Positions 12,177-55,580 of a DNA stretch of 64,000 nucleotides are shown here, in pieces (the first letter of the stretch is position 1; every line of letters begins with the position of its first letter). The stretch comes from Diospyros lotus. Its lineage: Eukaryota; Streptophyta; Magnoliopsida; Ericales; Ebenaceae. The stretch spans positions 36,640,670 to 36,704,669 of the forward strand of contig NC_068344.1 in the NCBI RefSeq assembly GCF_014633365.1. The letters are read 5' to 3'. A model generated the notes under the pieces. The model made no database searches. It saw nothing but the letters and a program-made list of their open reading frames with translations, and was not told the DNA's origin. The translations under genes were made by a program, and so were the position numbers.

Positions 12177-13631
12177 ATGGGAAGAGCAACCAGGTGGCTA
12201 AAGGGCTTGTTCGGGATAAAGAAAGACAAACCAAAAAAGGACAGCACCAATCCCGGTGACCGGAAAGACACGAATAGCTGGAGCCTTGGCCACTCGGGGA
12301 GAGACACCGGTCCGCTGTGTCAGAATCCAGCGACCATACCACCAAACATTACGCCGGCCGAGGCTGCTTGGCTCAAATCCTTCTACCATGACACCGAAAC
12401 CGGCGAAACGGAGCAGAACAAGCACGCAATCGCCGTCGCGGCCGCCACTGCCGCCGCCGCAGACGCAGCCGTCGCAGCAGCTCAGGCGGCAGTCGCGGTC
12501 GTCAGGCTCACTAGCCAGGGCCGAGGCACCATGTTCGGTGGCGGCCGGGACTGGTGGGCCGCCGTCAAGATTCAGACCGTTTTCCGCGGATTTTTAGTAA
12601 TTACATCAGCTTTTTGGGACCGTTTCTTCTTTTTTGTAACGTTTCAGTTACAATTAGAAGGAGATTGGATTTGAATTAGCTTTTTGATTATATTTGAACA
12701 GGCCAGAAAGGCGTTGAAAGCTCTGAAAGCACTGGTGAAGCTTCAAGCTCTAGTTAGAGGGTATCTGGTGAGGAAACAAGCCGCTGCAACGTTCCATGGA
12801 ATGCAAGCTTTGATACGAGCACAGGCGACTGTTCGTGCCCAGAAATCGCTCGGATTATCCTTCAACACTAACAATTTTCATCCACATTTTAGAGCAAGAA
12901 AATCTAGCGTAAGACCCAAGTCTTTGATTTTGTCTTTTATTGGATAAGAATGAGAATCCGCAGAATGAACAGTTTCTTTTCTTTGACAGGAAAGATTTGA
13001 TGATACGAGAAGCGAGTACATTTCACGAATTCATAGCAGAAGGCTTTCGGCTTCTTTCGATGCCACAATGAACGGAAATTATGGCGTAGATGAGAGCCCC
13101 AAGATAGTGGAAATGGACACCGGGAGGCCCAAATCAAGATCCCGGCGGACGGACGCCTCGCCGTCGGATTCCGGCGAGGACCCGTTCGGCCATCCGCCGC
13201 CGTCGCCGCTCTGCTGCCGGATCCTCCGAGACGATGACTGCCGCTTCTCCACTGCCCAGAGCACGCCCCGCTTCGTCAATTCCACCGGACAAGTCACCCC
13301 TGCGAAAAGCACCTGCACCGACGGCGGCGTTTACCGGCAGTACGCCGGTTTCCCGAACTACATGGCGAATACACAGTCGTTCAAGGCGAAGCTGAGGTCT
13401 CAGAGCGCCCCGAAACAGCGGCCCGACGCGGGGTCGTCGAAGAAGAGGCTTTCGTTGAACGAGATGATGGAATCAAGAAGAAACAGCCTGAGTGGGGTCA
13501 GAATGCAGAGGTCATGTTCACGAGCCCAGGAGGTGATCAATTTCAAGAACGCTGTGATGGGCAATCTTAACAGGTCTTCAGAATTTTCTCGAGAAAAGGA
13601 GAGAGATTTCGGTTTGCCGAGAAAGTGGTGA
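12177..13631 (+). CDS. IQD: IQ67-domain (IQD) calmodulin-binding protein
   Basis: The model is join(12177..12596, 12702..12908, 12990..13631), 422 aa, with GT-AG introns in phase 0. IQD proteins are plant scaffolds that bind calmodulin through IQ motifs and associate with microtubules, membranes or the nucleus. The N-terminus [16 protein letters not shown] is typical of an IQD22-24-like clade. The IQ67 domain starts near residue 130 ([13 protein letters not shown], then [20 protein letters not shown]). The first intron falls inside it after residue 140, the conserved family position. An Ala-rich helix precedes it (about 84-107). The C-terminal half is Ser/Arg-rich with a DUF4005-like [16 protein letters not shown] block and a [15 protein letters not shown] block. 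CT-rich leader sequence lies upstream. Family membership is secure; the exact orthologue is inferred. Confidence 0.93.
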
Positions 13632-24914: not shown

Positions 24915-27900
24915 ATGGAAGAAAGAGTACAGCAAGTTGAGCAAATCATATCAATGCTCACCAATGGACAACAAGACATCAAGCAGCAGCAACAAAATTT
25001 TATTACGTAGATGACAGAGTTACTTGCAAAATTGAGTACTAAGGTCGATCATATTGCTGGACAATTAGGCAAGGAAAATACGGAGTCGTCACAAGCTACA
25101 CATCACACCAGTGGTAAACACTCAAACAACAACAGAGAATCTCCAGGTCTTGGTTCATCAAATTCTTATGCACCTAAGCTGATAAAATTGGAATTTTCAC
25201 GCTTCAATGGTGGAGAAGATCTGACTAGTTGGTTGTGTAGAGTGGAGCAATTCTTCCAGTTTCAAGACACTCCCAAGGAAGATCGTGTAGCATTGGCCTC
25301 ATTTCATCTTGAGGGCTATGCCCAGTTATGGTATCAGTTATTGAAGCAAGATTCTGATCATCTCACTTGGGGTAATTTCAGGGAGGGACTTCTCTCCCTC
25401 TTTGGTCCAAACAAATTTTGTGATTTCTTTGGAGAGCTCACGCGATTGCAACAAACATTGACAGCGCAAAATTATCAGGCTCAATTTGAGAAGTTATTGG
25501 CTAGGGTTGGTCATCTTCCCCCCAACCAACAGGTGAGTAGTTTTGTTTGTGGGTTGCAATATTCTATTAAAGCTGATATGTAGGCTGGGAGGCCAAAAAC
25601 AGTGTCTGATGATGTTGCATTAGCCCGTGTCTACGAAGCTCGAAAACTATCTCAAAGGAGGGCGAGCCAGCTACCTGTCTTAAGATCCAACTCTCAATCC
25701 AGTCAAGCAGTAACCAGCAACCTATTCCAATCAGAAAAATGTCATCAGCCGAATTGCAAGATCGAATGAGGAGAGGGCTTTGTTACAATTGCAATGAGAA
25801 GTTTAAACCAGGTCACTGTTGCAAGAAATTATTTGTCATTGAAGCGTGTGTGGAAGAGGAAGATGTAGACTTGATCGTGGAAGAGGATGGAGAGGTGGAC
25901 GAGCAACCTTTGGAGACACCTGGAATTTCTCTTCATGCTATCAGCAGACTTCGCTCTCCAGAAACAATGCGAGTCCATGGCAGCATAAGTCAAAAGTCAA
26001 GTGGTTGTCAGTATTTTAATTGATTCAGGAAGCATCCACAATTTTGTGAGTGAGAAGGTAGCCAAGAAAGCGGGGTTGAAGCCTCAATTAGGTGGGCAAC
26101 TTAAGGTGATGGTAGCATCTGGGGAGAAGCTAACCGGTCCTGGTAAATGTATGAATGTCGCTCTCAGCTTGCAGGGATTTCCTATCTATGTTGATTTTTA
26201 TATATTACCACTTGAATGATATGATGTGGTCTTGGGAGCTCAATGGCTTTGTACTTTGGGACCAATTCTTTGGGATTTCTCTAAGTTACAAATGAAGTTT
26301 TGTATTGACAGTAAAGAGGTAGCCCTACAGGGGATGTCCATTCCAGATGACAAGATTATTGGGGTAAATCAAATGGAACATGCAATCAGGAAAGGGAAAG
26401 ATGGAACTTTTTTGAAGTTGTTTAGCTTGGAGGCTACTCAAGGGAAAATGTTTGGTTCATCTATTCCTTCCAAAGCTCAACCAATTTTGCACAAGTACCA
26501 TGAAGTGTTAGCCCTTCCACCCCTGCATTCTCACGATCATTGAATTCCACCAGGGGCGGATGCAGGGGGGGACTGGGACTGGGACTAGGCTGTGCCTAGA
26601 CTTTTATATATTTATATATATATATATATTACTATAGTATATATATTTTTACTGTTTAGTTCGAGCTGGCACTAATCTTGGGTAAAAGACCAGTATCGGT
26701 TCAACTTTACAGATATTCACAATTCCAAAAATTTAAGATAGAAAGGCTAGTTAATGAGCTATCATCCATAGGGGTTATTCATGTGAGCAACAACCCCAAT
26801 TCCTCTCCGGTCTTTTTAGTGAAGAAAAATGATAGATTGTGGCGTATGTGTATTGACTATCGAGAGCTAAACTAGATTATAATTAAAGACAAATTTCCTA
26901 TTCTTGTAATCGATGAGTTATTAGATGAGTTACATAATGAAAAGATATTTTTCAAACTTGATTTGCGTTCTGACTACCATCAAATCAAAATGCATCACCT
27001 TGACGTGAAGAAAACTGCATTTCGCAGTCATCAAGACCATTATAAATTCTTGGTCATGCTTTTTGGTCTCACGAATGCTCCATTTACATTCCAAGGACTA
27101 ATGAACCAAGTCTTTCAAAAATTCTTAAGGAAGTTTGTTCTTGTATTTTTCGATGACATATTAATTTATAGCAAATCTTGGCACGATCATCTTCGTCACT
27201 TAGAGATTGTATTTTCCACTCTAAAGATTAACCATTTGGTTGTTAAGCTTGAAAAATGCCAATTTGGCCAAGGGGAGATCAAATACTTAGGCCATGTTAT
27301 TTCTAGTGAAGGTGGTGTTGTTGATTCTGATAAGATTTCAACTATGGTTGACTGGCCAAAGCCGAAAATAGTCAAAGCTCTCCGAGAATTTTTGGGTTTA
27401 ATCTGTGACTTTGAGAAAATAGCCAGCCCTTTACAAAATTGCTAAAAAATGGTTATTTTTTATGGACCCCACTTGCAGAAAGTGCATTCGAGCAACTTAA
27501 GACAACAATGACTAAAGCTCCACTTTTAGCCCTTCCAAATTTTGTGAAAGATTTCATTGTCGAGTGTGATGCATCCATCTCAGGAGTAGGAGGTGTTTTG
27601 AGGCAAGATAGACCTATTGCATTCTACAGCCATGCATTAAAGGGTACAAATCTTTTATTGTCCACTTATGAAAAAGAAATATTAGCTCTTGTTCTTGCTG
27701 TCCAAAAATGGAGAACATATTTGTTGGGAAGGTAATTTGTGATTTGTACAGATCACCAAAGTCTCAAGCATTTATGGAATCAGAAGGTCACAACAACGGC
27801 ACAACAAAGATGGTTGTACAAATTAATGGGGTTCATTTTTGTCATTGTGTACAAGAGCGATAAAAGATAATGTGGTAGATGATGCCCTTTCACAAAGGGA

Positions 27901-29346
27901 AGAAGGAAACCAAGGGGAAGTCTTAGCCATCTCTCAGCCTATTTCGAATTGGACCTCAACAGTAAGGGAAGAAGTTCAAAATAATTCCGCTCTTCAGTTG
28001 CCAGTACAGAACATAACTAATGGCGAAGCAGTGGGGCCTTGGAGATTCCAAAACGGATTAATCTTTTTTAAAGATAAGATTTATCTTGCTAAGGATTTTT
28101 TCCTAACCGAAAGAGATAATTAATCAATTCCATGGAAGTACGCATGAAAGTTTTCTTAAAACTCTTCATAAGATACGATCCAATTTTCATTGGCAAGGAA
28201 TGAGGAAACAAATCAAAGAACACATCAGGTGTTGCGATGTTTGTCAACGGCACAAAACTAACCATCTCAAACCCACAACCTTGCTACAGCCATTGCCAAT
28301 TCCAGATCAGATATGGGAAGACATTGCAATGGATTTTATTGAAGGGTTGCCATCTTCTAAAAGTAAGTCAACCATATTTGTTGTGGTGGATCGTTTGTTA
28401 AAGTATGCTCATTTCATTGCAATTTTCCATCCATATTCACCATTGAGTATTGCTCAAATATTTTTTGATAACATATTCGGGCTCCATGGTATGCCAAAAT
28501 CAATTGTCTACGATAGGGACCCCACATTCACTAGTAACTTTTGGACAAAATTATTACGACTGAATGGCACTGAGTTTAATTTTAGCTCAGCATATCATCC
28601 ACAAACAAATGACCAAAGTAAGGTGGTGAACCAAACTATAGAAATGTATCTTCGATGCTTCGCTAGTTCTCAACCTACACGGTGGGGTAAATTGTTGGCT
28701 TGGGCAGAGTATTGTTACAATTTCATTTGGCATTCAACTATCAAGAGAACTCCATTTGAGCTGGTGTATGGTCGAGAACTGTCTAATTTATTGAGACACA
28801 TACCAAGAATGGCAAGGGTGGTTGTAGTAGATAAGGAGCTTAGTGAGAGAGATCTGATTGTAAAGGACTTGAAGGCGAACATTCAGAAAGCTCAAAACCG
28901 TATGAAATAGGCATATGATGCTAAGCGCATTGAAAAGGAGCTCTATATTGGTGATTGAGTGTATTTACGGCTGCAACCATACAGACAATCTTTTGTTCCT
29001 ACAAGGAAGAATTTCAAGCTGTCCCCAAAGTTTTATGATCCATTTTAGATCTTGCAACGTATCGGGCCCGTAGCATATAAGCAGCAATTACCGAATGAAT
29101 CCAGAATCCATTCAGTTTTTCATGTTTCTTAGCTGGGTAGGAAATCATGTTCAAGTATAATCCCAACTTCCTGTTATGAATAATGATAAACTGGTGTATT
29201 ATCCACGAGCAGTTTTAGACCAGTGGGAATATGGACGGAGGAAGGATGTGTTGGTTCATTGGCAGGGACTTTCACCAGCAAAAGCCACTTGGGAAAACGT
29301 GGAGTTTATGAAGAATCAGTTTCCTGATTTTGCACTTGAGGACTAG
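24915..29346 (+). pseudogene. Chromovirus gag-pol polyprotein, multiply broken
   Basis: Reading continues from ATG 24915 through in-frame stops at 25008-25010 and 25581-25583 and several frameshifts. Recognisable parts in order: gag (SWLCRVEQFF region, about 25190-25580); a zinc-knuckle remnant (LCYNCNEKFKPGHCC, about 25778-25820); protease (ILIDSGSIHNFVSE, about 26012-26055); reverse transcriptase with VFFDDILIYS (about 27135-27170); RNase H (VECDASISGVGG, about 27560-27595); integrase with the DVCQRHK zinc-finger end (about 28235) and catalytic core (28300-28760); and a chromodomain (LVHWQGLSPAKATWENVEF, about 29250-29310). A 7-10 residue deletion follows the RT at about 27405. About 110 bp of foreign AT-rich DNA is inserted at about 26555-26680. 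It cannot be translated as one protein. Confidence 0.9.
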
Positions 29347-34454: not shown

Positions 34455-37400
34455 TTACTTCCAAACCTTAATGGCCCCATCTCTACTGCTTGATATTAGA
34501 AGTCGTTGGTTCAGCTTGACAGGAGCCAAAGATAGAATAGAGTCACGATGGCAACCTGCAGAATCAGTGGCAGCAGCAGCAAGTACTGTCTTTGGAGTCA
34601 ACTTGGTTGCCAGAGGTCGTCTCATCGTCTCCTGAGAGAATTAGTGGAATCTCAAATATCAGTCCCACTCCAATGACTTAATAACTATGGAAGACTTACA
34701 ATCTTTTTTCAATTAAAAAAAAATCTTATGTTAAACCCCTAATGGAAGACTGCACAACAATACATCTATAAGAGCCGAGAGACTTTCTACAAAGAATGAG
34801 TTCTTTGCAATTAGGCTTAAGAATACTCAATATACCCATGAGTTTACAACAGTATAAATTTTATAAAAATATATCACAAGAAAATATCAGGGAATCCTGA
34901 ATAGGCCTTGCCTTTAGTCAGTACAGAGCTAGCTATACTAAAGACTTCTACAAAAAAAATTTACAAGTTAATCAACTTTTCTAGGCACCAAGATATTGAC
35001 TACAAACACTTGGGCAACAGGTACATTACCAATACAAGCAAGCAACCGTACATATAGATGAAATAAGGAAACTAAGTATGCAAGTTATAGTGCACAATTA
35101 TATACCAAAACTGCCACACAATAACTTTTTGTTTCTATTATTCTGATAAAAGTCTGGGGGGAATGTACATTCAGCTCATTTCTGTAGGTTTAACTGTCAG
35201 TCCATGAACAGGAGCATATTTAGCATCAACAACACAAAGAAAAGTTTGGGGGAATCCTGCTTCAGTAATAGAAGATACCTGCACAACTTGTACCCCAAAA
35301 CTAGACTTTGTTTCAAAAAAATAATCATTTCCAACTCCCTTTACAGTTGGCCCACAGACACAGTAGCTCTTGTCAGGGCTGCAGTATTGAAACCAATGGC
35401 CAATTAGGTAGAAAAAATCACAGGATAACCAAATGAACAAAAATGGGAAACAAATAAAACCTGTAATGGTCCCAGCGACGTATCTTCAAGTCTGTACCAC
35501 CAGTTAACAGATCTCCTCCAGGTAAGGGGAGCAAAGAACGAATACCAGGAACACGGACAGCAGGCTCATTAAGTTCATCAACCCTGTACTTAGGATTGAC
35601 ATTTCGCCTTAGATCGGGTTTAATATTTGCTTTAGTGGATGGCCTGGCCAATGCCCAAGGAAGGTCAGAAAAATCAGCATCACTGTCATTATTTATCACC
35701 CTCAATACCTGCAAACTCATATGAGAAAATAGTGATTTGTTAGGAGAAAACTGATGAAAAACAAGCAAACTTTATGCATAATGTAAAAAGGGCCACTCCA
35801 GATATTGAAATCATAACAGGTTTATTTCATTTACTTAAAACAACTCATCCTTCAAACTATTAGACAAGCACTTAAAAGTTTACCAATTGATTGTTGTCCA
35901 TTAAATATCTTTAGAATATCTTCCAAACAAAACACGTGAAACAACTTCTAGAATTAGTAAATCCAGATTGAGGATTCTTTCATTTTCTACTGGATTCAAA
36001 ATGCATCCAACTCTCAATTTCACTTATTTTGAAAGCCAAGTTATACAAAGAAGAACCCTGTATTTCGCATAACATTTTCAATGTTTGCCTCTCCTCCATA
36101 CATGCAGGCACTCTGTTTGTCATCATTCAGCATCTTATCAGATATGTCTACCCCATTTATATGTTTATCTCTTTGGGATTATATAAAATTCCAGCATTCT
36201 CATGGAAAAAGGAAGATTAATCTGTCCAATTCCACTAATATAAAGCTTCAATTAAAAAAAAAAAATAGCAACTTGCCTGGTGGCAGCTTCCATTTTCTGC
36301 ATTCCAAAGAGAGACTTCATTACAACCTGCTGCAACATAAACAAGAGGCCTTGCAGCAGTTGATATAGCAGTGTTTGAAGGTGGAAGAAAAAGGCACATT
36401 TTCTCAATAGGACAAACAAGAGAATACTGCCATGAGTTGACAGGAAGACAGAACCTAAGATCCCAAAGAGTAAGCACACCTCTTGAAGAGCCAGACACAA
36501 ACCAGTTCCCACAAGGGCTTGCCACCAGAGAGGACACATAACCTTCCTCAGGATTTACTGTTGAATTCCATGAGTTTGAATTTGTTCTCATATCCCAAAG
36601 ATGTATCCCACAATGCTGGGTGCTGTACATAATCATCTGCCTGGAATCCCTATCTGCTGAATAGTTTAGAAGGCTGAGTATGGCACCTTCTCCAACACTT
36701 GTTTTTTTGACATCAGCAATGCCTGTATACTTCTCAACAATGTTGCCAAGACCTCTAGAGATATAATCAACAGAGAACATATGTATTACACCGTCGCAGG
36801 CTCCAACAACAACTTGAGCGGAGCCTTGGAGCATTGCAACGTGTAGTGCTCTGCTTCCCTCCAGGGAATAAGTTAGCCTCGACCTAAATGAGATGTCTTT
36901 CTCTAACTTCCTGGAATCCCACACCTTAACAGTGGAATCATCAGATGCACTTACAAAAAAGCTATGATCCGTGGAAATGGCAATGTCATTAACAGCAGAA
37001 CGATGCTCCTGAAGATGTGCAACCAACACCCCACGTGGCTTCCACCCTGAACCTGGGATTGATGAACCTCGTGTAAACGATGGTAATCCAGTTACATCTG
37101 TTGGACTTCCGCCATCTTCCTCTACAATAGGACTTCCTTTCATTGCACTAGATCTAGTTGAGTCTTGAAACTTGCTGCTAATAAATGCTGTTTGATCATT
37201 TTCCCTGCTTTCTGCTTCATGCACCACTCTGTGAAACTGTTTAGAATTGTTACTAATACTAAAAGAACCCGAGACTAGCTTAGGCAATGGAACTGAACTA
37301 GCCAAGCCTAAGGATTTATTTGCTGGATCCATCCAAGGCATGGACGATGAACCCAAGCCAAGAGTGTTCAATTGCAGTGATGAACCAGAGGCCGCTGGAG

Positions 37401-40400
37401 TAATTGCTGCTGCTCGTTTATCTTTCTTAAAGTAATACAAAGGTATGCCTCCTGATGATTTCTCAACAATAAAACTGTTCGAGCAACTAATTTGAGGAGA
37501 CATAAAGCTAGAAAATTGCAATTTTTCTGGGCAAAGAGAATCACGATTATCAATTGGGCCAGAAGTAGTAGGAAGAAAGCTAGCCGTAACACCTAGTTTA
37601 GCATCACCATTATCAGGCTTGGTCAGATTCAGCCATTCAGTTCCATTGCCACCAGGTGTATGACCCTCTACATCATATGGTCTGTCAGACCATCCCTTTA
37701 TTGGATTCAATTCTCCAGCTGCTCTCTTGTACAGGTCTACAGTTTCCTGTTGTTTAGATTGAGGTGATGAATTATACCATATCTTTCTCTGTCTCTCTAA
37801 CATGTCTGAACTCTTGGCATTTTCTAAAACTTCATAAAATACCTGCCTAGGGACAGGAGGCTTTAAACATAAAAGAAGAGCCTTTTCTGATGCTAGAGAT
37901 GCAGGTTGTCTGCGGAGGAATGGACGTATGACTGGGACAAGGAAAACATAAGAATCTACAGCACCTAAACTCTCACTGCTAGCTGCAATAAAGGTGACTG
38001 ATGACCTCCTTACCCACTGGCTGGGATAACACAATAATGGAAAAGCACGCTCAATCATTTCAAGCAATACCCTCTTCCGTAGGAAGTCACTCTTGCATAG
38101 AATGGCCAAGCAATCTAATGCATTCACAATTACAGCCTCTGATGCATCACTTAAGGCCTGCTCAATGTAAGGTAGAAGATACTCCTCTACACTTCTTTGG
38201 CCCACAAAGAAGCAGACATAAATGATCTGTCCATAAAATACAGCTCTCAGCTGTTCATCTCTATCATTTAAAAAAGCAGGAAGGATGGGCAACAAAAGGT
38301 CGTTACTCTGTCTCTGACCGAAGAACCAACATAAGTTGCCTATATCCTGCAAAAGTGCTCTCCTGATGTTTGGAGTTTGCTTTGGGCCCATTACAAGTTC
38401 CTGAATGACATCAGCTATGGACTTCCTCAACTGTGCAAGCTGCACATCACTGTTCCGGTTATGCAAGCGTCCAGATGCCTCAGTAAATGGGGGAGACGAA
38501 TTTGCTTCATTGAGAATACCTGCCTCACTCAAGCTTATTGAGTGAAGTAAAAACCCGTAAGCAGTTAGAGCCAGTTTAGATATATTGCTAGCATAACATA
38601 TCCTCACACTTTCCTCTGAATCATCGGGAAGCATGGACAGCATTGGAAGAATATACTCTGGAAAAATTTTAGCATCACTAGGAGGAAAATCTCGAACTAA
38701 AGGCAGAATATCACACAAAGTCTCCAAAGCAGCACAGCGCACGATTGCCGCAACATCAGAAAGCATTGCAACAACATATGGAAGTACACGCTGCAGTCGA
38801 TCTTCATCATCAATATATAAGGAGCAAGACTTAAGCAACAGTACAGCTCCCCTTCTCAGATGAGGCAGTTTGACATTGCGTATGCAAGAACATAGCAGAG
38901 AGGCAATCAGAACCATACCTTCACAGCTATCACCGTCCTGAGGCAATGGTAACAAAGGCATTCCAAAAGTGTCTGACTGATTTTCATATTCAGACATCAA
39001 TGAATTCAACTCATTCATTGTAATTTTTTTCAGAAAAGGATGGTGATTTCTTTTAAATACACTAGAGATGGACTGAAGTAGCTCGCCAGGGGATTGCATG
39101 CCACACTGTTTCTGATCTTCAGATAATGCAGAAGTCGCTGCATCCACTAGTATCGGTTTCATTTCTGAATAGCGATTACTCTGTTTCACATCTCTGAGTA
39201 AATTACTGATATCACCAATAAGTTCAAGACGATCATTAACTGACCCTTTCTCTGCCTCTTCCTTTTCCATCAGGGAAACATTTTTCAAATCAAAGTTTTT
39301 CTTTATACCCATCGGTTGTAATGATTGACCACCTATGGTGCCTGACTGTTTTCCCAGTCCAACACCTGTCTCCTGATTTGAAATTTTGTTCATCATTTGC
39401 TTACGTATCTCCTGAAAAACAGTCTGGCACACTGCAACCTACAGGAGAAAGGAGCAGTATAAGTATTGGTATGCAGGACAAAAGATTCCAGTATTAAAAG
39501 ACTTAAACTATGAAAGTGTCAAAGAGGTTCTGTTTTGACAAATTCGGACATAAGGCTCCATACCCTTGCATCAGAATCAAGTCGATTCAAGTGGGAATAG
39601 AAATTATGAAGAAACGGTGAGAAGTAGCTTGGGAATACAACACTTGCATAGTTCTGAAGGTAATTTTCAGCAGAAAATCTCAACTCTGGATCCAACTGAA
39701 TCATGTGAAGAATCATCTTACGGATTCCTGAATCTGGGATCTACACACATAAGACAGAGATTTGACAGTAAGCATGAATAGAGGTCAATTCAAAAAAAAA
39801 ACTTGTTGGAAAAAATTGATTTAAGTATTTATTGAAAACCTATTTAGAGGAAATTTATAATTTGCAGAAATAATCCACAAAGTAAATACATAATAAAAAA
39901 ATGATAGCATACAGACTAGATCAGAATGAAGTTCCATTTATATCAAAGGGAGCCATGGAACATGAGGCTGAGTCACCAGAGAAGACATGATGCCATGAGA
40001 GACTACCTTCTCAAGATGTTGGGCAGGATCATATTGACCTCTGCGATAAGCAAGAAGCTGAGACAATTCAAAAAGAGGCTGGCCCTCAAGGAAAAGTTCC
40101 GCAATCACACACCTAAAAGCATCAATCACTCCAATTAGAACATGCACACATATGATATTGCATAAATATACACTAAACAATGAAATTTCACATGATGCAT
40201 CAGCACTTGGCCAAGGTCAAACAATTTACCAAATGCATCCCATTTAAGTGAGACAAACATATGATCAAGTTGTACACTTTCTATTAGTGGCAGTAAGGCA
40301 CCCATGTCACACAATGGCATACACAGAGAACATAAAAAGAAACTGGAAGGCTATGAAGTTGTATGATGTCCAATAATAAATCAAATCCCAGAGAGTTGTA

Positions 40401-45523: not shown

Positions 45524-45749
45524 GGGGGTGTTTGTTAACCAAGATAAGAGGGAGAAAATGTTAGATATAGGAAGCATTCCGGATGTTTGGTATTTCCAAC
45601 GTATTTGTTAATCTTATTTGACCATTTTCAGAAAAGGCCTCACGTGACCTCTTATCTCTCACTTTCAAGATAAATTTATCCGACCTCCCCCCTCGGATAA
45701 ATTTATCTTGCTCTTTCAAGATAAGGCTGAATTACTTATTTGCCCCTTG

Positions 45750-47839
45750 TGACTGCACTCTCACCCTGCAATTAAAACACAATAAAAACAAATCATAATA
45801 AAACTTTTATATTTTTTTTTATTTTAGTGAGAGGTTTATACTCGCCAGTGTACGAGTGCAGTTGTAGTCCAAATTTATATTTATATTTTCTGGATGAATC
45901 CAGGTCGTCCACTGAGAGATTTATTTATGGCAAAAGAAAAAGAATGTCACACACACGCACACGCATTTGGACAAATTGACAACAAGATTTTTTATGGTTT
46001 TGTTTTTAGACAACAGATACTAGAAAATAAAGTAAGGCAAAAATTAAAATAAACATTAAACGTAAAAATATGAATTTGGATAGTGCTTGAGTTAAGACAA
46101 TTTCAGTACCAACCCGTTGATTCCCAAATTTTAGCATAAAAGATTAGCAACATTAATTTAATTTCAGATATGAGGGTTTGTTATTAAATGCAATTAGAGA
46201 TGATGATAGTTCTAGGTTAAGCAATCCCCATACATGATATGCGGGATTCTAATTTAAGCAACCACCATAAATCCAATTGCAATTAATACACAAAACAACT
46301 AAATTAATCATCCGGATTTGGGTATGATAGCGTTTCCAGTTCTAGTAACTCTCATACATGGCATGAAAGCTCTAAGTTAGGCTTACGCTCCAATCCAAAC
46401 CTAGTGATTTTTTAATAATTAATACACACTCATACTGAAATTTAAATTAATGTTACTTATTTAAAGCGCAGCTTTCTTTGGGAATCATTGGCGTTGGACA
46501 CTGTCCTTGCCTTAACCCAAGATTAGATTTAGCTACTCATTTTTATTTGAAAGTTAATTGACATAAATTTAAATGACGTAATTTAAATAACAGAATTTAA
46601 ATGACAAGAAATTTAAAGGCATAAACTAACCGGCCATTTAGGCGGTGAATAATTAAATGACAAGAATTAAAATTGCAGAAATTTAAAAGCACAAATTAAC
46701 CGGCCATTTAGGCGGTGAATAATTAAATGACAAGAATTAAAATTGCAGAAATTTAAAAGCACAAATTAACCGGCCATTTAGGCGGTGAATAATAAAGTAA
46801 TAATAAATGACATAAGAATTTAAAAGAAGAAAGAAAAAAGTAAGATTATAAGAGAAAGTACTAAAGAAAATGAGAAAGAACAAGAACAATTCTCAAAGAG
46901 AGAATTATAAGGAAACAACTAAACTTTTATTCAAGAATAATAATCACACTTACAAATGCAATCAAGTGAGCTATTTATAGGCCACAAGATGCAATACAAA
47001 CCACACAATTTCAATTATTCAATTAGACATAATTATATCTAATGGGCACTCACACACTTAAAGTTAAATGGATTTTAGCTATAATACACACCTAATATTA
47101 AATGAATTTTAGCTAAAATACATACCTAATAAAGCACTCATAAAGTTAAATGGATTTTAGCTATAACATCCACCTAATAGTTAAATGGATTTTAGCTAAA
47201 AAACACACCTAATAAAGCTCTCACATAAAAAATAAAAATAGATTTCTATAAATTGGTTTTTAATCTTCATTAGGATTAAAAATAATCCTTGGGCCTTCTC
47301 AAAATAATATTTTCCATGGGTTGTTCAAATTGGGCCTTAATTCTTCATGGACTTGATTTCTTCATGGATTTGATTTCTTCATGGATTTGAATTCTTCATG
47401 GACTTTAATTTTTCATGGGCTTGATTTCTTCATGGGTTTGATTTCTTCATGGATTTGAATTCTTCATGGACTTTAAGTCTTCATGGGCTTGAATTCTTCA
47501 TGCCTAAAAAAAAATAATAATAATAATAATAATTTAATGTTATTAATAAATTATATATTATATATATGTATTACACATGGCACATATATATATTAGATTA
47601 TATTATATATATATATATATATTACATGCATGCATATAATGATGTATATGTATTATATATAATTTTATATATTATTATTATTATTATTAAATTTTACTTT
47701 AAAATTTCATTTCATTCATTTTTCAATTTAAACTTGCATATAACCATAAAATATATATTAATATCTAATTTAAACCATTTTTAAGATCAAAAGAAGGGTA
47801 TAATTATAACAAAATTTTTACAAAATTAACCACTAATCA
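45750..47839 (-). repeat. LTR (3' LTR in element orientation)
   Basis: Contains a run of about three roughly 73-bp units sharing ACCGGCCATTTAGGCGGTGAATAA (about 46630-46795), repeats of CTTCATGGATTTGA (about 47345-47505), a TATAAATA box on the minus strand (46972-46979) and a (TA)n tract (about 47600-47625). It duplicates 53195-55280. Confidence 0.95.
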
Positions 47840-49454
47840 TACCCCCAACTTAAACATTGCTAGTCCCTTAGCAATCAGATTATACACATGCCAAGCTTTA
47901 ATAACTGTATGAATGTAAAAATTTTAAATTCGAAACCGAAATGCATAAAATTGAATAAATAATTTAGCATTCTAAATCAGATTTTTGGTTAAAGGTCATA
48001 TAATCTCAGGAATGGAAATTAGTATAACCAACACACAGACTTACTCCCTCAAAGTTTTGACTTCAAATCTTACTATGGATTTTCTCTCCAATAAAAAGGA
48101 TTCCTCAGGTGTACACACAAGGGGGTGCACCGTTATAAGAGTAAATGCAGAACAAGTTCAAAACTCGGTGCCATCCCAAATACAAGGAACGTATTTTCAT
48201 GAAAGAACAGGGAAATTGACATAGCTTCATGATTGGAATAATGCTCTAGACGAGTAACTTCTGAATTTAAACATGATTCCCTACTCCAAACTCGAATTCT
48301 GAGATCACATGATTTATAGCATCAACAGGGACCAGACTGGTTGTAATGGGGCTATAAGGTTAATACGAGTTGTCAAAGAAAATGTAGAGTGTGCAAAGGG
48401 TGTGTCGGGATTTTTTTTTTTTTTTTTTTTTTTTTAGCATTTATTTTGAAACAATTATGCTGAATAGCTAAGAGAATTTGCCCTTTTTTTTTTTTTTTCT
48501 TTTTCTTCTTTTTTTTTCTCTTTTTTTTTTCTTTTTCTCTTTAAATATGAAAATAGAAAGACAGATTAATTCCCAAAATCACACCAGGTTGGATAAAATT
48601 CATATGGTTATGGGTTAACCGAGAGTAACGAAAGAAATTGTACTACAAATGGCTCAAATGGGATAGCAAGGGAGGTTAATTTAAAGAAAGAAAAATGTTT
48701 AATAGGCTCATACTGAAAGAAATTGATCCCCCTATCATGGTTCTCAGTCATCTAAGTCAAAGTTTGAAACCAGTCAAATTCATCCGCTATCATACTAGAC
48801 ATTCAAAGCGAATTGATATTTTGAAACCATTGAAAAGATAAGATAAACAAGAGAGCATATTTAGAGTAAGTGTTATTTCACTCAGAATTAATGGTTATTA
48901 GGCTCAAACACTTACTTGGGTAATAGTCTCCACTTCTGTTGAGGGATCATACAATGTACTAATCAGCTAATTACTGTTACCTTTGACTTTATGACCGATA
49001 ACCAATTTTTAAATTTTGAATCCCCGATGAATGCAAATTACTTATTCTCATGCATAAACGTTTTCAAATAAGAAATCAATGCATCCATGTTTCGTATTGC
49101 AAACTTAACCGGCTATCAGTGCATAACTTTAAAGCTTTAGGAATAGCATTATTTAAAACACAATTTTTTTTTTTTATAAGAGCAGATAAAGATAATCAAT
49201 TCCCACAAGACAACAAACTAGCAATAGCAAACTCACAGTTAAATATGAACCAAATAATTCATGACTAGACCTTACACCCCCCAACTTGAATTGCAGTAAT
49301 AAATCAGGGTTGTTAGGAATACCTGTAACTCCACAAGTCCATAGATTTGCTGTGAACTGCTAAAACTTAAACAACAAATGAACACACCATATATATATAT
49401 ATTTATATTTTCACACCAAAATAAAAATTTCATGCAAGTCATAAGATAAGCAAA

Positions 49455-49499
49455 ATGCGTCTCAAGAGTACAAAAAGTACTCCTTACTCAGCCACCTTA
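49455..49499. repeat. 45-bp hairpin repeat, copy 1
   Basis: ATGCGTCTCAAGAGTAC, then an A-rich loop, then GTACTCCTTACTCAG. The sequences GAGTAC and GTACTC form a perfect 6-bp stem with a 5-nt loop. Copy 2 is at 49617-49661 and a variant lies within the NABP-like gene at 50653-50706. Confidence 0.85.
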
Positions 49500-49616: not shown

Positions 49617-49661
49617 ATGCGTCTCAAGAGTACAAAAAGTACTCCTTACTCAGCCATCTTA
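49617..49661. repeat. 45-bp hairpin repeat, copy 2
   Basis: Nearly identical to copy 1 at 49455-49499. It ends 14 bp from the LOG stop codon, so it lies in the 3' UTR of any LOG transcript. Confidence 0.85.
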
Positions 49662-49675
49662 ATAAAGAGCATTTC

Positions 49676-50335
49676 TCACAGTGATAAATCTAAATTAATC
49701 GGACCCCTTTGGCGCTTGTTACTAATTGCCTTAGACCAGTCTATCCGAGGCTCATGAGGATCGTACTGTGGAACATAAGCATGTAATTTCTCTAGCAGCT
49801 TATCAATGGTGGATGCAGAAATGAGAATCTTTCTTGCTGAACGAGAAATGAACTGTTGGTCCACAGCCTGATCAAGAAAAGAGAGTAACCCATCGAAAAA
49901 ATGGTTAACATTTAAAAGTCCAATGGGTTTGGTATGGAGATTACTCTTGGCCCAGGAGATTATACAAAAGATTTCTTCAAGTGTTCCAAAACCTCCTGGT
50001 AAAGCAATGAAGGCATCTGACTGATAAATCTTACAAGCCATGCGCTCAGACATAGAAGTCGTTTCTATAAGTTGACCGCGTGTAATCCCGGAAATATGTG
50101 GTTCAGCTAAAGGGATTGGCATTACACCTACCACAGATGAATTTCCAAGATGTACAGCTTGTGAAACATAACCATTCAATCCACGACTCCCCCCCCCATA
50201 TACCAAATTAATTTTTTTCTCTCCTAATTTTTTACCAAGTTCGCTCGCTGCAAGTGCGTAACAAATATCGCTCCCAAGTTGAGAGCCACAAAGTACACAT
50301 ATGGTATTGATTCGACGAACTAACTGGCCTTCCAT
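49676..50335 (-). CDS. LOG: LOG-family cytokinin riboside 5'-monophosphate phosphoribohydrolase, intronless, inside a retrotransposon
   Basis: 219 aa, uninterrupted. LOG enzymes release the active cytokinin base from its nucleotide by removing ribose 5'-phosphate in the cytosol. Signature motifs are kept: CVLCGS near the start (13-18), GGGSRGLNG (47-55; family GGGSxGLMG), an Arg in MSERMA (98), and PGGFGTLEE (113-121), the active-site motif. Length is normal for the family. The C-terminus ends in a Ser/Lys/Arg-rich tail and NLDLSL, an LxLxL pattern. Plant LOG genes usually have several introns; this has none, as expected for a retro-copied transcript. It lies on the element's coding strand, 167 bp downstream of the NABP-like ORF. 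It is clearly diverged from typical LOGs, but the frame and active site are intact. Enzyme activity is inferred. Confidence 0.88.
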   Translation of the reverse strand: MEGQLVRRINTICVLCGSQLGSDICYALAASELGKKLGEKKINLVYGGGSRGLNGYVSQAVHLGNSSVVGVMPIPLAEPHISGITRGQLIETTSMSERMACKIYQSDAFIALPGGFGTLEEIFCIISWAKSNLHTKPIGLLNVNHFFDGLLSFLDQAVDQQFISRSARKILISASTIDKLLEKLHAYVPQYDPHEPRIDWSKAISNKRQRGPINLDLSL

Positions 50336-50502
50336 GTTTGTTCCTTTTGTATGTCCTGAAAAGAAGTTTGGCTATCAAAAGTAGCTATACAACAATTCAA
50401 CAAGAAATAAATACAAACAAAAATCATGCGTATGTATAAGTAGTTGTGATTGTGGCTCACATCTTCCTCTGGTTTTACGTCCAGAAACGGCTTAAACACT
50501 TT

Positions 50503-51048
50503 CTATGAAGCGGGGATAAGCTTCCCATCCAATTTTCTTATAGATTGGCAAACAGGGTCGTTTTTAGTCAGATTCCCAAGACTATAGCGTTGGTGGTCAC
50601 TTCTGAACTGGGTCCATAAAGCAAGAAGTTCTCTTTGCACTATTCCACATGGATGCGTCTCAAGAGTCAATCGGATATCATCCAGAGACTCCTTACTCAG
50701 TCCATCCTTTATGAAACTAATTTTATCTTCTCGATTTATGGACGTAAACCCCACAGATTTGCATCGTGTGTTACAGGTCCATCGAGCACATTTGTAACAA
50801 CCATTCACTCTTTTCGCTCTTCTTTTCTTCGCAAAACTACTCTTCCCTAAGCCTGGAAAATGCTTAAAACTAGGTGAAGTTTCACCAGCTAATCGAACTT
50901 TTGCTTCGATCAGCCAACGAATATCTTCAGGGATGTTATTAAGCATCAACAACCTAAGTCTTTCACACCTAGCAACATAAATTTTTTTCAAATCATTCTG
51001 CGGGAGAGATGGATAGTACTTGTGAATTTTTGAGAGATAAAGATCCAT
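50503..51048 (-). CDS. Basic Cys-rich protein resembling plant RNA-virus nucleic-acid-binding proteins
   Basis: 181 aa, intact. Residues 66-80 are Gly/Ser then strongly basic (GLGKSSFAKKRRAKR). They are followed directly by a C-X2-C-X4-C-X3-C cluster (Cys84, 87, 92, 96). A basic run joined to a Cys cluster and then a charged segment (DKISFIKDG) is the layout of the small nucleic-acid-binding proteins of Betaflexiviridae (carla-, tricho- and vitivirus-like). In those viruses they bind RNA and several act against host silencing. The N-terminal 60 residues are helical and unrecognised. It is intronless, on the coding strand of the retrotransposon, upstream of LOG. A TATA-like CTATAAGA on the minus strand at 51201-51208 could be a private promoter. 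Viral kinship is by pattern only; an unrelated zinc-binding protein is the alternative. Confidence 0.55.
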   Translation of the reverse strand: MDLYLSKIHKYYPSLPQNDLKKIYVARCERLRLLMLNNIPEDIRWLIEAKVRLAGETSPSFKHFPGLGKSSFAKKRRAKRVNGCYKCARWTCNTRCKSVGFTSINREDKISFIKDGLSKESLDDIRLTLETHPCGIVQRELLALWTQFRSDHQRYSLGNLTKNDPVCQSIRKLDGKLIPAS

Positions 51049-51710
51049 TTTTTTTTAAAAAAAAAAAAAAAATTATACTAAGAAGAAAGTAAAGAACTAT
51101 AAACTTTACAAAAGGGATGAGAGTACCTGATCTGAGAATAACACAAAGGAGAGAAGATTGAGCTCAAGAGGGGTGACTTGCCTCATACAGATATGGAGTC
51201 TCTTATAGAGCAATGGGCATCACTATTCTACACTCGACTCGAGGCATGCCATAATTGCACCGTCAGACTTGACGTCGTTTAGCGTCTCATTTTTCAACAT
51301 TTGGCAGTGTGCCTTTTTTTTTTTTCAACGCTCGGCGCCTCTGTTTTCAACATTTGGCAGTGTGCCTTCTTTCTTTATAGGGCAGTGTGATTGCACTGCC
51401 CAAGAAAAGATGGCTACCACCAGCGTCAATTCTGTCTCTCTCAATTCAATTTTTTTTTTTTTAATTAATTTTGTTTTAATTTTTTTTTTTTAGGTAAAAT
51501 TTTGTAGACACCTTACCCCCCAACTTAAATTGCGTATTGTCCTCAATTGGCAATAAAAGGATAGAAGATAGGCATACCTGGCGGTCTTCAATACATAAAC
51601 TCGTATGGAGAAATTTTATTTAGACTGCACATAGAGAAACACTAGTTAAGTAATGCAGAAAAGGAACAACTTATATGTATATATATATATAATTATTTTA
51701 TTATATATTT
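51049..51710. other. Spacer between gag-like and NABP-like ORFs
   Basis: Contains a duplicated 20-bp block CAACATTTGGCAGTGTGCCT (about 51295 and 51348), several T-runs, a TATA-like site on the minus strand, and a TTGAGGACAATACG..AAGTTGGGGGG motif on the minus strand (about 51515-51545) of the type found before the polypurine tract in Tat/Athila elements. No ORF of note. Confidence 0.5.
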
Positions 51711-52961
51711 TTATTTTATTATTTTTTTAGAGTTTTTTTTTTTTTTTTTTTTCTTCCAGTTAAGGATCAAATGAGTGGTTGCCCACCTAATCGTATAATA
51801 TCTCTCATTCACTACACCACTTTTAAAGTTATTTTCAAAATTATGTAAATTGATTTTTCTCATGAATGCACATACATATTTTGAAAATATATCATCCGGC
51901 GGTGTTGGTTTTATTACATCAGAGTACGACACATTAATTTGCACAAACACCTTACACATGTTTAGTTTAATTTGATCCCCAATAATATCGACTAGCCTAA
52001 AAGATAGAATTTTAGGCTTAAATGTGGATAAACTTATGACATCTTCACATTTTAGCTCTCGGATTTTATCCTCTTCTTCCTCCCAGGTTTCTTCTTTTCT
52101 TACATCATTTTGGTCTTTTTCTTCCTCCAAGGCTTCATTGACATCTACCTCACTGTGATCAACCACTCTCTTTTCTTGCACCAAAAGGTGTACTGTCCTA
52201 GGGGCATCAAGTTTCTCAATTATTTCTCCATTCCTTAAGACAGTCACTCCTATGTCCTGCTCCTGACTTTCACTTTTGATGATGTGTTTTATTAATGGGA
52301 TTTGGAGTGAGTTGGGATGGACAGGCTCTGATATACTCAAAGTCTGTGTTAGCTGTGTCAATTGGTTCCTAATGTCCTCTGTAACTCTAATGGTGTGTTC
52401 TTGACATTTGGACATTTGTGTAAAAATTTCCATTTGGCCTTGCATAAATAGATTGAAGGTATCTTCTAATGAACTCCCATGAGGGGGTTGATATGCATCG
52501 AATGTAGACCCTTCATTCGTTTGAAATGATTGAGGCTGGGAAAGGAAGTGCTCATGTGGTTGGGCTACAAAATCATTTTCCCATGAGAAATTTGGATGAA
52601 AGTGTGAATTAAGGTGATATGCATCAAAGTCCGAATGGTAGTTTTCCTCATGGTTCTGGTAATACATTCTCTCATAGTTGTGTGTGTGTGTGTAATTGGA
52701 TTGACCATACAATACCTCCTTAAAAGCAGGTATTATAGGGCAGTCATCCGTTAAATGAGCTGAAGTCTCACACACAGCACACCAAACCTCAATTTCATGG
52801 TAAGTGGGTAACAAATGGGTAGTGTCTGATTGCAAATCAAAAGTGGTTTGCCTAAGAGGGTATAGATAATCCTTAAGAGGTCTAGACAAATCAGATTCAA
52901 AATGATAATTTTCATCATGATAAGTATCTTGTGCAGACAGATTGTAGTAATTTTGAGACAT
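51711..52961 (-). CDS. Gag-like protein of the LTR retrotransposon
   Basis: 416 aa. A zinc knuckle of form C-X2-C-X4-H-X4-C lies at residues 61-74 (CAVCETSAHLTDDC), followed by a Tyr/His/Asn-rich linker, a predicted helical stretch (about 165-215; SLEDTFNLFMQGQMEIFTQ) and an acidic region (about 265-300). The knuckle, the SLEDTFNLFMQ block and VTVLRNGEIIEKL resemble the C-terminal half of gag in plant Tat/Athila Ty3/gypsy elements. The usual N-terminal capsid part seems to be missing. The last residues (K-rich) come from a T-run and may lie beyond the native end. It would supply RNA binding or packaging; particle formation would need a partner element. Confidence 0.65.
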   Translation of the reverse strand: MSQNYYNLSAQDTYHDENYHFESDLSRPLKDYLYPLRQTTFDLQSDTTHLLPTYHEIEVWCAVCETSAHLTDDCPIIPAFKEVLYGQSNYTHTHNYERMYYQNHEENYHSDFDAYHLNSHFHPNFSWENDFVAQPHEHFLSQPQSFQTNEGSTFDAYQPPHGSSLEDTFNLFMQGQMEIFTQMSKCQEHTIRVTEDIRNQLTQLTQTLSISEPVHPNSLQIPLIKHIIKSESQEQDIGVTVLRNGEIIEKLDAPRTVHLLVQEKRVVDHSEVDVNEALEEEKDQNDVRKEETWEEEEDKIRELKCEDVISLSTFKPKILSFRLVDIIGDQIKLNMCKVFVQINVSYSDVIKPTPPDDIFSKYVCAFMRKINLHNFENNFKSGVVNERYYTIRWATTHLILNWKKKKKKKNSKKIIK

Positions 52962-53171: not shown

Positions 53172-53189
53172 TCCCCGGCAACGGCGCCA
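53172..53189 (-). other. Primer-binding site (tRNA-Asp)
   Basis: The minus strand reads TGGCGCCGTTGCCGGGGA, five bases from the end of the 5' LTR. It complements the 3' end of plant tRNA-Asp including CCA. It fixes the element orientation as minus. Confidence 0.9.
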
Positions 53190-53194
53190 AAATT

Positions 53195-55280
53195 TGACTG
53201 CACTCTCACCCTGCAATTAAAACACAATAAAAACAAATCATAATAAAACTTTTATATTTTTTTTTATTTTAGTGAGAGGTTTATACTCGCCAGTGTACGA
53301 GTGCAGTTGTAGTCCAAATTTATATTTATATTTTCTGGATGAATCCAGGTCGTCCACTGAGAGATTTATTTATGGCAAAAGAAAAAGAATGTCACACACA
53401 CGCACACGCATTTGGACAAATTGACAACAAGATTTTTTATGGTTTTGTTTTTAGACAACAGATACTAGAAAATAAAGTAAGGCAAAAATTAAAATAAACA
53501 TTAAACGTAAAAATATGAATTTGGATAGTGCTTGAGTTAAGACAATTTCAGTACCAACCCGTTGATTCCCAAATTTTAGCATAAAAGATTAGCAACATTA
53601 ATTTAATTTCAGATATGAGGGTTTGTTATTAAATGCAATTAGAGATGATGATAGTTCTAGGTTAAGCAATCCCCATACATGATATGCGGGATTCTAATTT
53701 AAGCAACCACCATAAATCCAATTGCAATTAATACACAAAACAACTAAATTAATCATCCGGATTTGGGTATGATAGCGTTTCCAGTTCTAGTAACTCTCAT
53801 ACATGGCATGAAAGCTCTAAGTTAGGCTTACGCTCCAATCCAAACCTAGTGATTTTTTAATAATTAATACACACTCATACTGAAATTTAAATTAATGTTA
53901 CTTATTTAAAGCGCAGCTTTCTTTGGGAATCATTGGCGTTGGACACTGTCCTTGCCTTAACCCAAGATTAGATTTAGCTACTCATTTTTATTTGAAAGTT
54001 AATTGACATAAATTTAAATGACGTAATTTAAATAACAGAATTTAAATGACAAGAAATTTAAAGGCATAAACTAACCGGCCATTTAGGCGGTGAATAATTA
54101 AATGACAAGAATTAAAATTGCAGAAATTTAAAAGCACAAATTAACCGGCCATTTAGGCGGTGAATAATTAAATGACAAGAATTAAAATTGCAGAAATTTA
54201 AAAGCACAAATTAACCGGCCATTTAGGCGGTGAATAATAAAGTAATAATAAATGACATAAGAATTTAAAAGAAGAAAGAAAAAAGTAAGATTATAAGAGA
54301 AAGTACTAAAGAAAATGAGAAAGAACAAGAACAATTCTCAAAGAGAGAATTATAAGGAAACAACTAAACTTTTATTCAAGAATAATAATCACACTTACAA
54401 ATGCAATCAAGTGAGCTATTTATAGGCCACAAGATGCAATACAAACCACACAATTTCAATTATTCAATTAGACATAATTATATCTAATGGGCACTCACAC
54501 ACTTAAAGTTAAATGGATTTTAGCTATAATACACACCTAATATTAAATGAATTTTAGCTAAAATACATACCTAATAAAGCACTCATAAAGTTAAATGGAT
54601 TTTAGCTATAACATCCACCTAATAGTTAAATGGATTTTAGCTAAAAAACACACCTAATAAAGCTCTCACATAAAAAATAAAAATAGATTTCTATAAATTG
54701 GTTTTTAATCTTCATTAGGATTAAAAATAATCCTTGGGCCTTCTCAAAATAATATTTTCCATGGGTTGTTCAAATTGGGCCTTAATTCTTCATGGACTTG
54801 ATTTCTTCATGGATTTGATTTCTTCATGGATTTGAATTCTTCATGGACTTTAATTTTTCATGGGCTTGATTTCTTCATGGGTTTGATTTCTTCATGGATT
54901 TGAATTCTTCATGGACTTTAAGTCTTCATGGGCTTGAATTCTTCATGCCTAAAAAAAAAAAATAATAATAATAATAATTTAATGTTATTAATAAATTATA
55001 TATTATATATATGTATTACACATGGCACATATATATATTAGATTATATTATATATATATATATTACATGCATGCATATAATGATGTATATGTATTATATA
55101 TAATTTTATATATTATTATTATTATTATTAAATTTTACTTTAAAATTTCATTTCATTCATTTTTCAATTTAAACTTGCATATAACCATAAAATATATATT
55201 AATATCTAATTTAAACCATTTTTAAGATCAAAAGAAGGGTATAATTATAACAAAATTTTTACAAAATTAACCACTAATCA
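53195..55280 (-). repeat. LTR (5' LTR in element orientation)
   Basis: Duplicate of 45750-47839. In this orientation it is the promoter-bearing LTR. It includes the same 73-bp tandem units and CTTCATGG repeats. Confidence 0.95.
54417..54424 (-). promoter_or_regulatory. LTR TATA box
   Basis: CCTATAAATAG on the minus strand within the 5' LTR. Transcription would begin about 30 bp further along the minus strand (near 54390) and run through the PBS, gag, NABP-like and LOG ORFs. Confidence 0.65.
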
Positions 55281-55580
55281 CCTTGTAAGATAATTAATGT
55301 CATTTAGTGCATTTTAAATATTTAAATTTATTAAAAAACCTTATTTATTTAACTCTTATAATTAATATTTTTTAATATATTTTTAAATTATTATATGTTT
55401 TGACAATTTTTAAAATTTAAATGACATTATTCATTTCATTGATTTTTAAAATTTAAATTTCTCTCTCTATATATTTTATTTAACTCTTTTCAACTCTTTT
55501 TAAATTTATTTTTGGACATGAATTTGAAAAATAAAATATTATTTTTAATTTTAATCTTAATTTTTTTGACAATTCATATT

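What the first reader, a model, noticed from the sequence alone, without database searches (positions are those of the whole stretch)
49676..50335. An intact, intronless LOG cytokinin-activating enzyme gene carried inside a young LTR retrotransposon
The ORF lies between the gag-like ORF and the polypurine tract, on the element's coding strand, with GGGSRGLNG, Arg98 and PGGFGTLEE kept and no stop codon. The family normally has several introns. A retroelement that multiplies a hormone-activating enzyme would be a new type of gene capture with possible effect on host growth. That the ORF stays open in a diverged LOG suggests selection, not a fresh passive capture.
Basis: partly seen in the sequence, partly recalled or inferred. 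Interest (0 to 1): 0.92.

Follow-up and report, generated by a model that had tools for sequence, protein, structure and literature searches.

The report
Jumping gene carrying plant hormone enzyme
A recently inserted plant retrotransposon carries an intact gene of the type that activates the growth hormone cytokinin, beside a gene resembling a plant RNA-virus protein, and related genes occur in many plants, apparently in mobile elements.

Summary
In detail: window 50335-49676 (minus strand) is an intact 219-codon LOG-type ORF inside a young LTR element (TSD CCTTG, LTRs 99.76% identical). (1) The LOG is no recent host cDNA copy. In a tree of 117 rows it falls in a clade of 107, on a long branch apart from ten canonical plant LOGs, with members in five eudicot orders. 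(2) It follows a second intact ORF (51048-50503) whose zinc-finger core matches the nucleic-acid-binding protein (CRP/NABP) of flexi-type RNA viruses (E 1.4e-8; 57 of 61 relatives match; reversed and shuffled controls do not). In an unrelated contig a CRP stands right after a retroelement integrase, with pairwise dN/dS about 0.27. (3) 88 of 107 clade rows end in an EAR-like LxLxL, usually after a basic cluster; 0 of 8 canonical rows do. LOG-type (YgdH) domains in Citrus and Populus gypsy elements were already in print, so LOG capture itself is not new; the CRP partner and the tail were not found in the searches made. Best reading: an accessory cassette of a retroelement lineage that acts on host growth or defence; function untested. 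The source genome could not be searched, so selection on LOG between copies is unmeasured.

The parts
45745..45749 (.). target-site duplication CCTTG (one side)
   Evidence: read from the sequence
55281..55285 (.). target-site duplication CCTTG (other side)
   Evidence: read from the sequence
53195..55280 (-). 5' LTR
   Evidence: 99.76% identical to the 3' LTR
45750..47839 (-). 3' LTR
53172..53189 (-). primer binding site TGGCGCCGTTGCCGGGGA (tRNA-Asp/Athila type as recalled)
   Evidence: sequence; assignment recalled
47840..47855 (-). polypurine tract GTTTAAGTTGGGGGTA
   Evidence: sequence
51711..52961 (-). gag-like ORF, 416 aa, no capsid domain found
   Evidence: no Pfam match above cut-off
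50503..51048 (-). CRP ORF, 181 aa, viral NABP-like zinc-finger protein
50436..50504 (-). stretch from the last two bases of the CRP stop codon onward, 61 of 69 identical to L005
49676..50335 (-). LOG ORF, 219 aa, basic plus LxLxL C-terminal tail (INLDLSL)
50653..50698 (-). repeat segment inside CRP ORF
49617..49651 (-). shortened copy of that segment 3' of LOG, copy 1
49455..49489 (-). shortened copy of that segment 3' of LOG, copy 2

Best explanation
The locus is a young, non-autonomous Ty3/gypsy-type LTR retrotransposon of a Diospyros-like plant that carries a two-gene accessory cassette, CRP then LOG, inherited from an old lineage and not copied recently from the host. Shown: LTRs, TSD, three intact ORFs, no RT or integrase trace; LOG in a deep clade with members in five eudicot orders; CRP core homologous to viral NABPs; a CRP right behind an integrase in another element. 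Inferred mechanism: both proteins are made from element RNA, perhaps by splicing to acceptor-like sites 20-30 nt before each ATG. The CRP binds nucleic acid and may suppress silencing or act as a nuclear factor, as viral CRPs do. The LOG releases active cytokinin, and its basic plus EAR-like tail may bring it to the nucleus and to TOPLESS-type co-repressors. Together they would hold host cells in a dividing or less defended state that favours heritable transposition. Confidence about 0.9 for what the element is, about 0.3 for the function.
For: Element structure and youth. LOG clade: 107 of 117 rows, SH-aLRT 100, stem 0.77; five orders by taxonomy look-up. R98 and E121 each in 105 of 107 rows; LxLxL in the last 10 aa in 88 of 107 and a basic cluster in the last 25 aa in 101 of 107, against 0 of 8 and 0 of 8 canonical rows; after reduction to 25 rows under 70% identity, 20 and 24; last seven residues 67% identical on average among the 20, against 35% for residues 191-205. 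CRP: Viral_NABP 1.4e-8, 57 of 61 members, core alone 6.7e-8 with reversed and two shuffled controls negative; the four Cys kept in 113 of 120, 118, 120 and 116 of 121 rows. CRP-LOG linkage elsewhere: three Orobanche gracilis gene models hold both families; three exact contig lengths with shared source, 0.07 expected. CRP after an integrase in L005 with NG86 dN 0.24, dS 0.88. Viral CRPs have an NLS and zinc finger, suppress silencing, and CVB p12 induces hyperplasia (PMC12172455, passages).
Against: No expression, enzyme or localisation data. The residue at 99, K in 8 of 8 canonical rows, is not K in 99 of 107 clade rows, so activity may be altered. NCBI's equivalog model for the enzyme scores 92 against a cut-off of 300. 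Pairwise identity of the window LOG to other-species clade members (45-60%) is hardly above that to canonical rows (47-51%), so clade membership rests on the tree, which is a quick one without bootstrap. L005 has CRP but no LOG in the 983 nt after it. LxLxL is not sufficient for TOPLESS binding: ten such effectors tested did not bind (PMC7446885, passages). Most clade rows were not shown one by one to lie in retroelements. LOG dN/dS is unknown. No RT tree.
Confidence: 0.55

Rival explanations
1. One-off passive capture: a host LOG mRNA was copied into this element by chance and has no role.
For: Gene transduction by LTR elements is known (PMC7264820). The element is young, so an intact ORF alone proves little.
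Against: The window LOG is 47-51% identical to the five canonical rows aligned and groups with 106 other rows in a deep clade. It keeps active-site residues and a tail shared across plants.
Confidence: 0.07
2. The CRP and LOG genes came together from an RNA virus that already carried LOG, and the retroelement took up the viral 3' end.
For: CRP core is viral NABP-like and an A-rich tract lies 3' of LOG.
Against: L005 has CRP without LOG, which fits separate gains or a loss. No virus with LOG was found: search returned only a retrotransposon paper, and viral-contig scans with the LOG alignment gave four distant loci, not examined. A-rich tracts are common throughout the element.
Confidence: 0.12
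3. The clade is an ordinary host LOG subfamily, and only the window copy (or a few) sits in a retroelement.
For: Databases name members LOGL10 as host genes; element context was not shown for most rows.
Against: Clusters with many distinct sequences, 327 for one with a Pterospermum-named representative; CRP linkage in other genomes; YgdH in Citrus and Populus gypsy consensuses.
Confidence: 0.12
4. The LOG is used as a nucleotide-binding scaffold or a co-repressor recruiter and no longer makes cytokinin.
For: Position 99 changed in 99 of 107 rows and a new conserved tail.
Against: R98, E121 and PGGxGT are kept in nearly all rows.
Confidence: 0.25

Closest known systems
YgdH/LOG-type extra domains in plant Ty3/gypsy elements (Citrus, Populus; PMC9289625, citing Steinbauerova 2011)
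   Same: A LOG-type domain inside gypsy-type LTR elements.
   Different: Section 12 of PMC9289625 names no CRP/NABP partner and no tail. The 2011 paper is not held and was not seen; that it reported Athila-like elements with LOGL4 similarity is recalled.
Flexivirus CRP/NABP (Pfam PF05515, PF01623)
   Same: Basic run followed by a Cys cluster; a 55-aa core matches at 6.7e-8.
   Different: Sits in a retroelement; about 180 aa, with N- and C-terminal parts that match no Pfam family; Cys spacing x2-x4-x3 differs from the carlavirus spacing as I recall it.
Canonical plant LOG (Arabidopsis At2g37210, At5g11950)
   Same: Fold, PGGxGT and R98.
   Different: Separate clade, position 99 mostly not K, basic plus LxLxL tail.
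Orchid gypsy elements with an AlkB m6A demethylase (PMC9289625)
   Same: A gypsy lineage that keeps an extra enzyme ORF (abstract).
   Different: A different enzyme, acting on RNA and not on a hormone precursor.
Pathogen effectors with a C-terminal EAR motif, such as HaRxL21 (PMC7446885)
   Same: LxLxL at the C terminus (passages).
   Different: A secreted oomycete effector with TOPLESS binding shown; here untested.

Membership tests
LOG cytokinin-activating enzyme | family profile and fold | tested here: met
   TIGR00730 146 bits against cut-off 96; PDB matches; fold
LOG cytokinin-activating enzyme | NCBIfam equivalog CtkRMPhLog above its cut-off | tested here: not met
   92 bits against 300; whether canonical plant LOGs reach that cut-off was not tested
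LOG cytokinin-activating enzyme | R98, PGGxGT and E121 kept | tested here: met
   window translation; R98 and E121 each 105 of 107 in the clade
LOG cytokinin-activating enzyme | phosphoribohydrolase activity | not testable with these tools
   needs an enzyme assay
LTR retrotransposon | LTRs, TSD, PBS, PPT | tested here: met
LTR retrotransposon | own RT and integrase (autonomous) | tested here: not met
   only gag-like, CRP and LOG ORFs of 130 aa or more; no convincing tblastn match of RT or integrase queries in the interior; hence non-autonomous
Athila lineage of Ty3/gypsy | RT in the Athila clade | not testable with these tools
   the element has no RT; PBS type recalled; no tree made of the L005 integrase
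Viral NABP/CRP family | Pfam PF05515 above gathering score | tested here: met
   35.4 bits against 23; 57 of 61 members at E 0.01 or better; reversed and two shuffled sequences without it
Viral NABP/CRP family | fold like viral CRPs | tested here: inconclusive
   low-confidence model, pLDDT 65.8; three named plant-virus CRPs among 17 BFVD matches, E 0.94, 2.7, 6.5, none significant
EAR-motif repressor | LxLxL motif | tested here: met
   LDLSL ends the window LOG; 88 of 107 clade rows (recounted)
EAR-motif repressor | TOPLESS binding and nuclear location | not testable with these tools
   needs binding and imaging experiments

The most novel reading that the evidence does not exclude
A retrotransposon lineage of eudicots has built a portable host-reprogramming cassette: an RNA-virus-type zinc-finger protein plus a cytokinin-activating enzyme re-addressed by a basic-EAR tail to the nuclear co-repressor machinery, used to push cells into a proliferating, silencing-poor state in which new copies reach the germ line.
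Probability: 0.25. Interest if true: 0.9.

Novelty: new variant of a known kind. Interest (0 to 1): 0.66.

Why it matters
If functional, a transposable element would be manipulating a plant hormone pathway for its own spread, much as tumour-inducing bacteria and some viruses do. It would join an RNA-virus gene family and a host-derived enzyme in one retroelement. It makes testable why some plant retroelements keep extra genes, and it suggests that some genes annotated LOGL10 in plant genomes may be element genes and not host hormone genes.

Tried and rejected
A one-off passive capture was rejected on the tree. Scans of viral contigs: CRP none; LOG none with the window protein, four distant loci with the alignment (L001-L004, not examined further); conserved non-coding stretch none. 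Genome contigs: one CRP locus, L005. Solved structures with CRP: one chance hit at E 1. Acceptor-like splice sites: 15 in the 5.35-kb interior, two of them 20-30 nt before the CRP and LOG ATGs; suggestive only. Repeats: three copies, none in 100 shuffles, but fold z-scores are weak, -1.30, -0.94 and -0.63; alignments A4 and A5 were not counted further. Contig-length matches under 2000 nt were judged chance and left out, whose lists (24 LOG, 42 CRP rows) were copied by hand. Six of 120 listed LOG proteins (P0005, P0006, P0007, P0032, P0090, P0115) were dropped from the tree as tandem, odd or short; none of the six has LxLxL in its last 10 residues. The 120 listed LOGs are the best-scoring of 7848, so they favour the clade. 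Of the 8 canonical rows, P0119 is short and ends before the tail position. The tail was noticed by eye and then counted, so the count is post hoc.

Full report
What is there. It lies in a 9,531-nt LTR element on the same strand: 5' LTR 55280-53195, 3' LTR 47839-45750, 99.76% identical over 2090 columns with one mismatch and one 4-nt gap, flanked by CCTTG on both sides. A PBS (TGGCGCCGTTGCCGGGGA) and a PPT stand at their expected places. The PBS is of the type I recall for Athila elements; this was not tested. The only ORFs of 130 aa or more in the element are gag-like, CRP and LOG, and tblastn with RT and integrase queries gave no convincing match in the interior.

Host. The closest LOG is a Diospyros lotus protein, 97%, and the closest gag-like protein is also D. 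lotus, 92%. I infer a Diospyros source. Another D. lotus protein joins the gag-like region (52%) to Retrotrans_gag and aspartyl-protease domains, so the window ORF looks like a gag that has lost its capsid domain.

The missed partner. Between gag and LOG lies 51048-50503, 181 aa. Pfam gives Viral_NABP (1.4e-8) and, barely above its cut-off, Carla_C4 (3e-4). Of 61 members aligned out of 121 at hand, 57 and 53 match these families at E 0.01. The match lies in residues 66-120 (6.7e-8); the two flanks, the reversed sequence and two shuffles do not match. The database holds 527 homologues at E 0.01, 120 listed, named ones from Populus, Orobanche, Xanthoceras, Acer and Rhamnella. The structure model is poor, and its viral Foldseek matches, which include three named plant-virus CRPs among 17, are not significant.

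The CRP in another element. One contig filed under a Nomurabacteria MAG (L005), by its content plant DNA, has an integrase ORF (rve and H2C2 domains) followed 192 nt later by a CRP ORF, 72% identical to the window's. NG86 gives dN 0.24 and dS 0.88 over 180 codons, and codon positions agree at 78, 81 and 59%. From the last two bases of the CRP stop onward 61 of 69 bases are identical, more than at third positions, so this is probably a cis element; one short stem, CTGG/CCAG in the window, reads CTAG/CTAG in L005, a compensatory change. There is no LOG in the remaining 983 nt of L005 by ORF list or blastn. So CRP can travel without LOG.

The LOG clade. A quick maximum-likelihood tree of 117 rows (window, 114 of the 120 listed hits, two Arabidopsis proteins) puts 107 rows including the window in one clade, SH-aLRT 100, on a branch of 0.77, apart from ten canonical rows. 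Pairwise identity alone would not show this: the window LOG is 45-60% identical to clade members from farther lineages and 47-51% to five canonical rows. The listed hits are the best of 7848, so they favour the clade. Named members come from Diospyros, Populus, Xanthoceras, Reevesia and Rehmannia among others, that is Ericales, Malpighiales, Sapindales, Malvales and Lamiales. Some clusters hold many distinct sequences, 327 for one with a Pterospermum-named representative, as expected for mobile elements, but element context was not shown row by row. R98 and E121 are each kept in 105 of 107; position 99, K in 8 of 8 canonical rows, is K in 8 of 107.

The tail. 88 of 107 clade rows have LxLxL in the last ten residues (recounted), and 101 of 107 have at least three K/R in five residues within the last 25; 0 of 8 canonical rows have either, one of the eight being cut short. 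In 25 rows reduced to under 70% identity the numbers are 20 and 24. Among the 20, the last seven residues are 67% identical on average, against 62% for the core and 35% for residues 191-205. The rows without the motif include six Xanthoceras rows, placed by the tree at the base of the clade, that end in KKRRLA or KKRKLA. The tail has low confidence in the model, as a short linear motif would. LxLxL is the EAR motif that recruits TOPLESS. A pathogen effector uses it at its C terminus, but ten other LxLxL effectors tested did not bind (PMC7446885, passages). TOPLESS binding is therefore a hypothesis.

Linkage of CRP and LOG elsewhere. Three Orobanche gracilis gene models contain both families, the LOG part incomplete. 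Among contigs of 2,000 to 100,000 nt, three exact lengths with a shared source occur in both hit lists, where jittered lengths give 0.07 on average and three or more in 5 of 100,000 draws' rate (20,000 draws, 5e-5).

Repeats. A 46-nt segment inside the CRP ORF recurs twice, shortened, just after LOG (none in 100 shuffles). Each copy can fold into a hairpin, but not clearly better than shuffles. Its role is unexplained.

How it may work. Viral CRPs carry an NLS and a zinc finger, suppress RNA silencing, and one (CVB p12) acts as a transcription factor and induces hyperplasia (PMC12172455, passages). LOG enzymes release active cytokinin (established knowledge). A cassette joining the two suggests manipulation of host cell division and defence. 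None of these steps has been tested here.

What is known. PMC9289625 section 12 reports the YgdH domain, shared with LOG, in Citrus gypsy elements and, with a looser filter, in Populus, in line with Steinbauerova 2011, which is not held. I saw no mention of a CRP/NABP partner or of the tail in the abstract, passages and section of that paper that I read, nor in part 1 of 3 and passages of PMC7264820, nor in the listings of searches for LONELY GUY with Betaflexiviridae, LONELY GUY with retrotransposon (25 of 44 listed), YgdH with retrotransposon, NABP and CRP terms, Athila with LOGL4, extra-ORF terms and cytokinin riboside with LTR retrotransposon. The library lacks most subscription journals.

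Verdict. A real and young retroelement with an old accessory cassette. LOG in such elements is known; the virus-type partner and the tail make it a new variant. The source genome, which would settle copy number and selection on LOG, could not be searched.

Noticed in passing
25011-28910 (+): Ty3/gypsy remains with separate gag, RT and integrase ORFs (integrase slightly below its Pfam cut-off).
   Followed up: partly
36235-39432 (-): Long VPS15-like ORF with helical and WD40 domains, a host gene about 6 kb from the element.
   Followed up: partly
12177-13631 (+): Two ORFs that look like parts of an IQD-type calmodulin-binding gene (recalled; the first has no Pfam hit).
   Followed up: no
46583-46793 and 47339-47502: Tandem arrays inside the LTR: 70-nt unit x 3.0 and 17-nt unit x 9.6.
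   Followed up: no
50653-50698, 49617-49651, 49455-49489 (-): A CRP-internal segment recurs twice, shortened, 3' of LOG around an A-rich tract.
   Followed up: partly
L005:2346-2414: Stretch after CRP conserved with window 50504-50436 (61 of 69), with one compensatory stem change.
   Followed up: partly
L005:1-3330: Plant retroelement-like DNA filed in a Candidatus Nomurabacteria MAG (DAIEQH010000041.1), probably contamination.
   Followed up: partly
51506-51547 (-): A PPT-like block upstream of CRP in the window matches L005 downstream of its CRP (38 of 42), so the two elements differ in order.
   Followed up: no
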